Shown in pieces: positions 10,146 to 10,338 of a stretch of 64,000 nucleotides of DNA (position 1 is its first letter; each line of letters starts with the position of its first letter). A program made the translations under genes and the position numbers. Below the pieces are notes generated by a model, which worked only from the letters and a program-made list of their open reading frames with translations, had not been told where the DNA came from and made no database searches. The DNA lies in NCBI GenBank assembly GCA_963457665.1, contig OY735207.1, positions 54,188,779 to 54,252,778 of the forward strand, in the 5' to 3' direction. The stretch comes from Thysanoteuthis rhombus (Eukaryota > Mollusca > Cephalopoda > Oegopsida > Thysanoteuthidae).

Positions 10146-10338
10146 TATTTATTGTGTCATCCACAGACAGCTGTTTCGATGTATTACATCTCTTCAGTAT
10201 AACTGTAGATATTCCAATTTTACATCCAGTTTTACTACGAGGCACAATTGAAACCTTCACTTCAGATCTGCAGGCCGATATCCTACCTCTGGACTACGGA
10301 ACTGGACAGTCAGTAGGCTGAATTTAAGTGATATATTT
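10146..10338 (-). mobile_element. Hammerhead family II element, copy a
   Basis: On the minus strand the unit begins ATATATCACTTAAATTCAGCC, runs through AGTTCCGTAGTCCAGAGGTAGG and GGTTTCAATT, reaches a hammerhead-like core (10160-10205) and ends GGATGACACAATA at a TATATA stretch. A homologous unit with the same ends is at 39861-40016. A 142-bp TA tract lies 55 bp from its 5' side. Likely a PLE terminal repeat or a short non-autonomous relative. Confidence 0.6.
10160..10206 (-). ncRNA. Hammerhead ribozyme-like motif, family II, fullest copy
   Basis: On the minus strand, core box CUGAAGA (10197-10191) is followed by a perfect 5-bp stem II (GAUGU with ACAUC, AAU loop) and GAAA. Then comes ACAGCUGU, whose AC/GU ends can close a short stem III, and the canonical cleavage triplet GUC, with UGUGG after it as the stem I strand. 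UUAUA before the core pairs with UGUGG with wobbles. All conserved core positions are present. Self-cleavage is untested. Confidence 0.65.

What the first reader, a model, noticed from the sequence alone, without database searches (positions are those of the whole stretch)
10160..10206. Near-complete minimal hammerhead ribozyme, family II, with a second copy at 39971-40012
Seen: CUGAAGA, a perfect 5-bp stem II with AAU loop, GAAA, a palindromic ACAGCUGU that can close a very short stem III, and a GUC cleavage triplet. The core and stem II are identical in a copy 30 kb away on the other strand. Known: hammerheads with tiny stem III occur in newt satellite RNA and in Penelope-like element terminal repeats. 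Inference: this is a ribozyme-bearing retroelement terminal repeat or short satellite-like element.
Basis: partly seen in the sequence, partly recalled or inferred. Interest (0 to 1): 0.72.

Follow-up and report, generated by a model that had tools for sequence, protein, structure and literature searches.

The report
Decayed hammerhead-like tail of SINE
Two old copies of a short mobile repeat in an animal-like genome end in what looks like the broken remains of a self-cutting RNA (hammerhead ribozyme), a kind of element already known from other animals, and neither copy looks able to cut well.

Summary
The letters are as described. The minus strand at 10210-10159 has CUGAAGA, a 5-bp stem II, GAAA, the palindrome ACAGCUGU and GUC. 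A second copy lies at 39974-40012 on the plus strand. The full motif arose in 0 of 1500 dinucleotide shuffles of the window.

The reading needs correction. No Rfam model reaches its cut-off. Copy 1 reaches 16.1 bits with Hammerhead_1 (cut-off 34); copy 2 has no hammerhead match up to E 10. Copy 1's strong stem I (7 bp) is 6 nt away from the core, and only a G-U-rich one touches it. Copy 2 lacks stem III, most of the cleavage triplet and the stem I arm. Core identity between copies is no evidence of constraint: 149 of 165 ungapped columns match.

The unit is about 180-210 bp, with a probable tRNA-like head and the hammerhead-like part at its 3' end. That resembles hammerhead SINEs such as Sm-alpha more than a Penelope repeat or tandem satellite. 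Penelope-type candidates lie elsewhere in the window (1297+, 29377-).

Most likely: decayed copies of a hammerhead-bearing SINE. Main rival: chance likeness in an imperfect hairpin. More genomic copies would decide; the genome search did not complete.

The parts
10140..10349 (-). Copy 1 of the SINE-like unit (aligned span, part of the AT-rich tail included)
   Evidence: Local alignment with copy 2; 149 of 165 ungapped columns identical outside the AT tail; BLASTN 74.4% over 199 columns with gaps
10226..10305 (-). Probable tRNA-like head of copy 1: CCAGTT...AACTGG ends pair, B-box-like GGTTTCAATT at 10255-10246
   Evidence: RF00005 tRNA 15.5 bits (cut-off 29, E 1.1) at 10298-10238 minus; end pairing, but no cloverleaf in the MFE; places
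10204..10210 (-). Copy 1 stem I 5' arm AUCUACA (strong register)
   Evidence: Pairs with UGUGGAU 10165-10159
10198..10203 (-). GUUAUA between the strong stem I and the core; its UUAUA could instead form a weak, G-U-rich stem I with UGUGG
   Evidence: Sequence; energies; PMC3088659 passages on insertions near C3 and stem I
10174..10197 (-). Copy 1 CUGAAGA, 5-bp stem II with AAU loop, GAAA
   Evidence: RF00163 alignment
10166..10174 (-). Copy 1 stem III palindrome ACAGCUGU and C17; predicted cleavage between 10166 and 10165
   Evidence: same layout as the RF00163 consensus
10159..10165 (-). Copy 1 stem I 3' arm UGUGGAU
39847..40025 (+). Copy 2 of the SINE-like unit (aligned span, part of the AT tail included)
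39894..39963 (+). Probable tRNA-like head of copy 2; B-box-like GGTTTCAATT 39937-39946
   Evidence: End pairing CCAGT/ACTGG; no tRNA match up to E 10
39974..39997 (+). Copy 2 CUGAAGA, stem II, GAAA; no stem III and no GUC follow
39999..40012 (+). 3' end TGTGGATGACACAA shared with copy 1 (10165-10152 minus)
   Evidence: 14 of 14 columns identical
40015..40086 (.). (AT)36 array following copy 2, shared tail-to-tail with another SINE-like unit on the minus strand
   Evidence: array; the neighbour's 3' part at about 40087-40148 minus

Best explanation
Two old copies of one non-autonomous, probably tRNA-headed SINE whose 3' part descends from a type I hammerhead ribozyme. Inferred life cycle: RNA polymerase III transcribes the unit from boxes in the tRNA-like head; in the ancestor the 3' hammerhead could cleave the RNA after GUC; a LINE reverse transcriptase copied the RNA from its 3' end. 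Cleavage would cut off the last 14 nt and the tail, so uncut RNAs would be the ones copied back, which would favour copies whose ribozyme is weak or broken. Shown: the two-copy unit, the core letters, stems II and III and a 7-bp stem I in copy 1, the 6 nt between that stem and the core, the deletions in copy 2 relative to copy 1. Inferred: ancestry from a working hammerhead, polymerase III transcription, mobilisation, loss of activity.
For: The conserved core positions listed in PMC3088659 (passage: C3 U4 G5 A6 N7 G8 A9, G12 A13 A14, A15-U16 pair, H17) are all present in copy 1. The RF00163 alignment puts stem II and stem III of copy 1 in register, and stem III of both the consensus and copy 1 is an 8-nt palindrome. 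Copy 1 also has AUCUACA/UGUGGAU at stem I. Core + stems I, II, III: 0 of 1500 shuffles. Position at the 3' end of a short interspersed unit with tRNA-like features resembles the published SINE-like Sm-alpha kind (PMC2770079, passages; PMC8490949, section 11). The two largest gaps between the copies (18 and 7 columns) take out the stretch with the stem I arm and stem III/cleavage site, decay of the kind PMC8490949 describes for broken copies.
Against: No covariance model reaches its cut-off; copy 2 has no hammerhead match up to E 10. The RF00163 alignment of copy 1 uses the weak stem I and marks two non-standard pairs there. Copy 1's MFE is a long imperfect hairpin (-15.1 kcal/mol) and the hammerhead fold is -6.1; the RF00163 consensus shows the same direction but a smaller gap (-12.8 against -7.8), so this is not decisive. 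Identity of the core between copies is not special: a run of 40 was reached in 3137 of 20000 permutations. The tRNA head is weak by model (15.5 bits; nothing for copy 2) and does not fold as a cloverleaf. No convincing target-site duplication. Only two copies; no relative found in the collections scanned.
Confidence: 0.57

Rival explanations
1. A chance likeness: the SINE's 3' end is an imperfect hairpin (AUCUACAG-5 nt-CUG-AAGA-GAUGU-AAU-ACAUC-GAAA-CAG-4 nt-CUGUGGAU) whose AAGA/GAAA internal loop happens to spell the hammerhead boxes; the hairpin may serve recognition by a LINE reverse transcriptase.
For: It is the MFE of copy 1, -15.1 kcal/mol, 9 below the hammerhead fold. It explains the 6 nt before C3 and needs no cleavage site. 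The stem arms explain part of the palindrome. Rfam matches stay below cut-off.
Against: It does not predict GUC right after the palindrome, nor all core letters at once; 0 of 1500 shuffles gave the full set, though shuffles do not model a hairpin-forming tail.
Confidence: 0.28
2. A metazoan retrozyme: a 170-400 nt unit with type I hammerhead that spreads through circular RNA made from tandem repeats.
For: Unit size and GC (0.39 for copy 1, 0.46 for copy 2, tails left out) fit; retrozyme-like repeats are reported in many invertebrate phyla (PMC7229834, sections 13, 14, 17).
Against: Retrozymes are tandem repeats; here only one CTGANGA core lies in 9601-11000 and one in 39301-40700, i.e. within about 0.5-0.7 kb on either side of each copy, and self-comparison shows no tandem unit there. 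A tRNA-like head is not among the features given in the sections read.
Confidence: 0.08
3. A Penelope-like element terminal repeat.
For: Very short stem III recalls the minimal hammerheads of Penelope-like elements (PMC6155905, passages).
Against: The nearest reverse transcriptase family fragments known in the window lie 4 kb or more from copy 1 and 6 kb from copy 2 (only 9 of 22 long frames were scanned); a tRNA-like head is present instead. Penelope-type candidates lie elsewhere in this window in a repeat that does not match this unit.
Confidence: 0.04

Closest known systems
Sm-alpha / Sj-alpha SINE-like elements of Schistosoma with type I hammerhead
   Same: Short interspersed, tRNA-related element with a type I hammerhead (PMC2770079 passages; PMC8490949 section 11); stem III an 8-nt palindrome in the RF00163 consensus and here; published copies include ones with deletions, insertions and core mutations.
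   Different: Sequence homology to Sm-alpha was not testable (no Sm-alpha sequence at hand; its founding paper is not held). Stem II sequence and stem I differ from the RF00163 consensus; in copy 1 the strong stem I does not touch the core. The host is not identified.
Metazoan (non-LTR) retrozymes
   Same: Size range, GC below 50%, type I hammerhead (PMC7229834; GC).
   Different: No tandem arrangement; probable tRNA-like head.
Minimal hammerheads of Penelope-like elements
   Same: CUGANGA and GAAA boxes, very short stem III (PMC6155905 passages).
   Different: No linked Penelope element seen; a 7-bp stem I and 5-bp stem II. Two likelier candidates for this kind are at 1297+ and 29377-.

Membership tests
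Hammerhead ribozyme (type I) | All conserved core nucleotides | tested here: met
   Copy 1 yes. Copy 2 no: the A15.1-U16.1 pair and the cleavage triplet are missing
Hammerhead ribozyme (type I) | Stems I, II and III directly adjacent to the core | tested here: inconclusive
   Copy 1: the 7-bp stem I lies 6 nt from C3; a 5-pair alternative with three G-U pairs touches the core but makes the fold unfavourable (+0.6 kcal/mol). Copy 2: not met, stem III absent
Hammerhead ribozyme (type I) | Covariance-model score above Rfam cut-off | tested here: not met
   RF00163 16.1 bits against 34, RF03152 14.6 against 56.3; 0 window matches at gathering
Hammerhead ribozyme (type I) | Self-cleavage | not testable with these tools
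   Needs transcription in vitro
tRNA-derived SINE | tRNA-like head with A and B boxes | tested here: inconclusive
   RF00005 15.5 bits below cut-off 29 in copy 1, none up to E 10 in copy 2; B-box-like string and end pairing; no cloverleaf
tRNA-derived SINE | Short interspersed copies with 3' simple tail and target-site duplications | tested here: inconclusive
   Two interspersed single copies; (AT)36 after copy 2, short AT-rich tail after copy 1; no convincing duplication, at most 7 bp for copy 2 and none of 6 bp or more for copy 1
Sm-alpha / Sj-alpha family | Sequence homology of the whole unit to Sm-alpha or Sj-alpha | not testable with these tools
   No reference sequence or eukaryotic collection at hand; not filed as a member
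Metazoan retrozyme | Tandem repeats of the unit | tested here: not met
   One core per locus; no tandem unit
Penelope-like element terminal repeat | Linked Penelope reverse transcriptase or flanking repeat pair | tested here: inconclusive
   9 of the 22 stop-to-stop frames of 120 aa or more were scanned with Pfam; 4 gave RVT_1, which does not tell Penelope from other elements, and all 4 belong to one repeat family 4 kb or more away; the other 13 frames were not scanned

The most novel reading that the evidence does not exclude
A tRNA-headed SINE family, perhaps outside schistosomes, carries a 3'-terminal hammerhead, and retrotransposition itself selects against the ribozyme because cleavage removes the tail that the LINE enzyme needs, so the genome fills with broken copies while a few masters still cut.
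Probability: 0.22. Interest if true: 0.5.

Novelty: new member of a known kind. Interest (0 to 1): 0.24.

Why it matters
Hammerhead-bearing short retroelements are known in animals, but what the ribozyme does for a single-unit SINE is unclear to me from the papers seen. A family with differently broken copies would allow a direct test of whether the ribozyme is kept or discarded during retrotransposition.

Tried and rejected
Rejected as evidence: identity of core and stem II between the two copies. Ungapped identity is 149/165, and a run of 40 identical columns arises in 3137 of 20000 permutations; two runs of 34 or more in 332 of 20000, which is uncommon but covers the tRNA-like part as well.

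Rejected: folding energy as a test. The RF00163 consensus also does not fold as a hammerhead at its minimum.

Rejected: the LINE of this window as proven partner. Its copies end in (ATG)n / (GAT)n runs, while copy 2 is followed by (AT)n.

Led nowhere: scans for relatives. The core pattern gave 0 hits in viral contigs; a looser one gave 1, L001, an IMG/VR contig with a complete-looking hammerhead of other sequence; head patterns gave 0 in viral contigs and 0 in genome contigs; the Rfam consensus core gave 0 in viral contigs and 0 in genome contigs. These collections hold viral, bacterial and archaeal contigs, so a miss says little about an animal repeat. Sequence words from the unit in full-text papers: one search found 63 papers, of which I saw the 20 listed, all matching only an 11-letter word, so probably chance; one search found 0. 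Host: not identified. The LINE 3' end reminded me of cephalopod repeats (recalled, not from a call), and a giant squid paper lists 235 Hammerhead_1 loci (PMC6962438, passage), but Schistosoma or another animal is not excluded.

Full report
What is there. On the minus strand, copy 1 reads AUCUACA (10210-10204), GUUAUA (10203-10198), CUGAAGA (10197-10191), stem II GAUGU-AAU-ACAUC (10190-10178), GAAA (10177-10174), the palindrome ACAGCUGU (10174-10167), C (10166), UGUGGAU (10165-10159). Copy 2 on the plus strand has the same core, stem II and GAAA (39974-39997), then goes straight to CTGTGGATGACACAA.

Is it chance? Core plus stem II of at least 4 pairs plus GAAA was seen in 66 of 1500 dinucleotide-shuffled windows; with 5 Watson-Crick pairs in 2; with a C-G stem III pair and GUH in 9; with stem I of at least 6 pairs too in 0 of 1500 (an earlier run gave 0 of 60 for a variant with stem I touching the core). 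The descriptors were written after seeing copy 1, and the later one allows its gap, so these numbers flatter it somewhat. The two copies are homologous and count once.

Does a curated model accept it? No. The window has 0 matches at gathering scores. With a permissive threshold copy 1 gives RF00163 Hammerhead_1 16.1 bits (cut-off 34, E 0.31) and RF03152 RAGATH-1-hammerhead 14.6 bits (cut-off 56.3, E 5.2), among 6 matches of which the others are unrelated families or tRNA. Copy 2 gives one match up to E 10, not a hammerhead.

The unit around it. The two copies align over 10349-10140 (minus) and 39847-40025 (plus); 149 of 165 ungapped columns outside the AT tail are identical, with gaps of 18 and 7 columns the largest but for another 7-column gap in the head. 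BLASTN with gaps gives 74.4% over 199 columns, and no third copy was found in the window (best other match E 0.15). GC is 0.39 for copy 1 and 0.46 for copy 2, tails left out. The head has tRNA-like features: a weak RF00005 match in copy 1 (15.5 bits, cut-off 29), pairing ends CCAGTT/AACTGG or CCAGT/ACTGG and a B-box-like GGTTTCAATT. It does not fold as a cloverleaf, and copy 2 has no tRNA match up to E 10. Copy 2 is followed by (AT)36, which it shares tail-to-tail with a different SINE-like unit on the minus strand. I therefore read the unit as a probable tRNA-headed SINE with a hammerhead-like 3' part.

Can it cut? Probably not, or poorly. In copy 1 the 7-bp stem I (AUCUACA/UGUGGAU) is separated from C3 by 6 nt. 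Passages of PMC3088659 report that short insertions near C3 and stem I are highly atypical, and that the one tested there, of 2 nt, left very little cleavage under standard conditions. The stem I that does touch the core has 5 pairs, three of them G-U, and makes the fold unfavourable (+0.6 kcal/mol); the Rfam alignment uses this register and marks two non-standard pairs in it. Copy 2, compared with copy 1, lacks stem III, GU of the cleavage triplet, and the stretch that holds the stem I 5' arm.

Two results against the ribozyme reading. First, the plain hairpin is the predicted minimum of copy 1 (-15.1 against -6.1 kcal/mol for the hammerhead); the RF00163 consensus behaves in the same direction with a smaller gap (-12.8 against -7.8). 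Second, the perfect match of the core between the copies is what 90% ungapped identity can give by chance (3137 of 20000 permutations reach the longest run; two runs of 34 or more occur in 332 of 20000).

Comparison with known kinds. Sm-alpha of S. mansoni is a SINE-like retrotransposon with a type I hammerhead (PMC8490949 section 11); PMC2770079 (passages) reports more than 38,000 hammerhead candidates in S. mansoni and more than 5,000 in S. japonicum, and a tRNA-Gln-derived SINE family similar to Sm-alpha. PMC8490949 also tested two natural variants, one with a core mutation and one with a cleavage-site deletion, and found the predicted loss of activity confirmed (section 11). Our unit looks like a decayed element of that kind. 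Membership of the Sm-alpha family was not testable. Metazoan retrozymes (PMC7229834 sections 13, 14, 17) are tandem; ours is not. Penelope-like elements carry minimal hammerheads (PMC6155905 passages); two candidates of that type lie elsewhere in the window.

What it most likely is. Two old copies of a hammerhead-bearing SINE, neither likely to be active (0.57). The main rival is a chance likeness in a hairpin tail (0.28). The search of the source genome, which would settle it, did not complete (11 tries). It is an ordinary kind of thing for animal genomes, and I score it low.

Noticed in passing
1297-1330 (+) and 29377-29344 (-): Two Penelope-type minimal hammerhead candidates: CCA-CUGAUG...CGAAACAUGUAUGGAC, in a repeat shared by 1282-1436 and 29243-29392 (79%). 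The first has a 4-bp stem II by eye; the second looks degenerate. Rfam lists no hammerhead match up to E 10 for the first or the second. The Penelope label is recalled from the kind of motif, not from a database match.
   Followed up: partly
40148-40087 (-) and 28900-29045 (+): A second SINE-like pair with a near-perfect B box (GGTTCGATYCC) and similar 3' parts; both are followed by TA-rich runs, and the 40148 copy shares its (AT)36 tail with copy 2 of the hammerhead-like unit.
   Followed up: partly
1-1196, 4871-6090, 20128-20747, 23309-25612, 32085-32305, 33383-33647: Fragments of a broken LINE family; 4 frames in it match RVT_1 (Pfam, one of them below the curated cut-off); most copies end in (ATG)n-type runs after a GTCCAACGACGGACG-like string. 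RTE-like by recall.
   Followed up: partly
52833-53663 and 63525-63999: Two satellite arrays, 38-bp unit (21.9 copies) and 29-bp unit (16.4 copies, running to the window's end).
   Followed up: no
L001 1011-1067: An IMG/VR contig carries a hammerhead that looks complete by eye, with paired stems I and III around CUGAUGA and GAAA.
   Followed up: no
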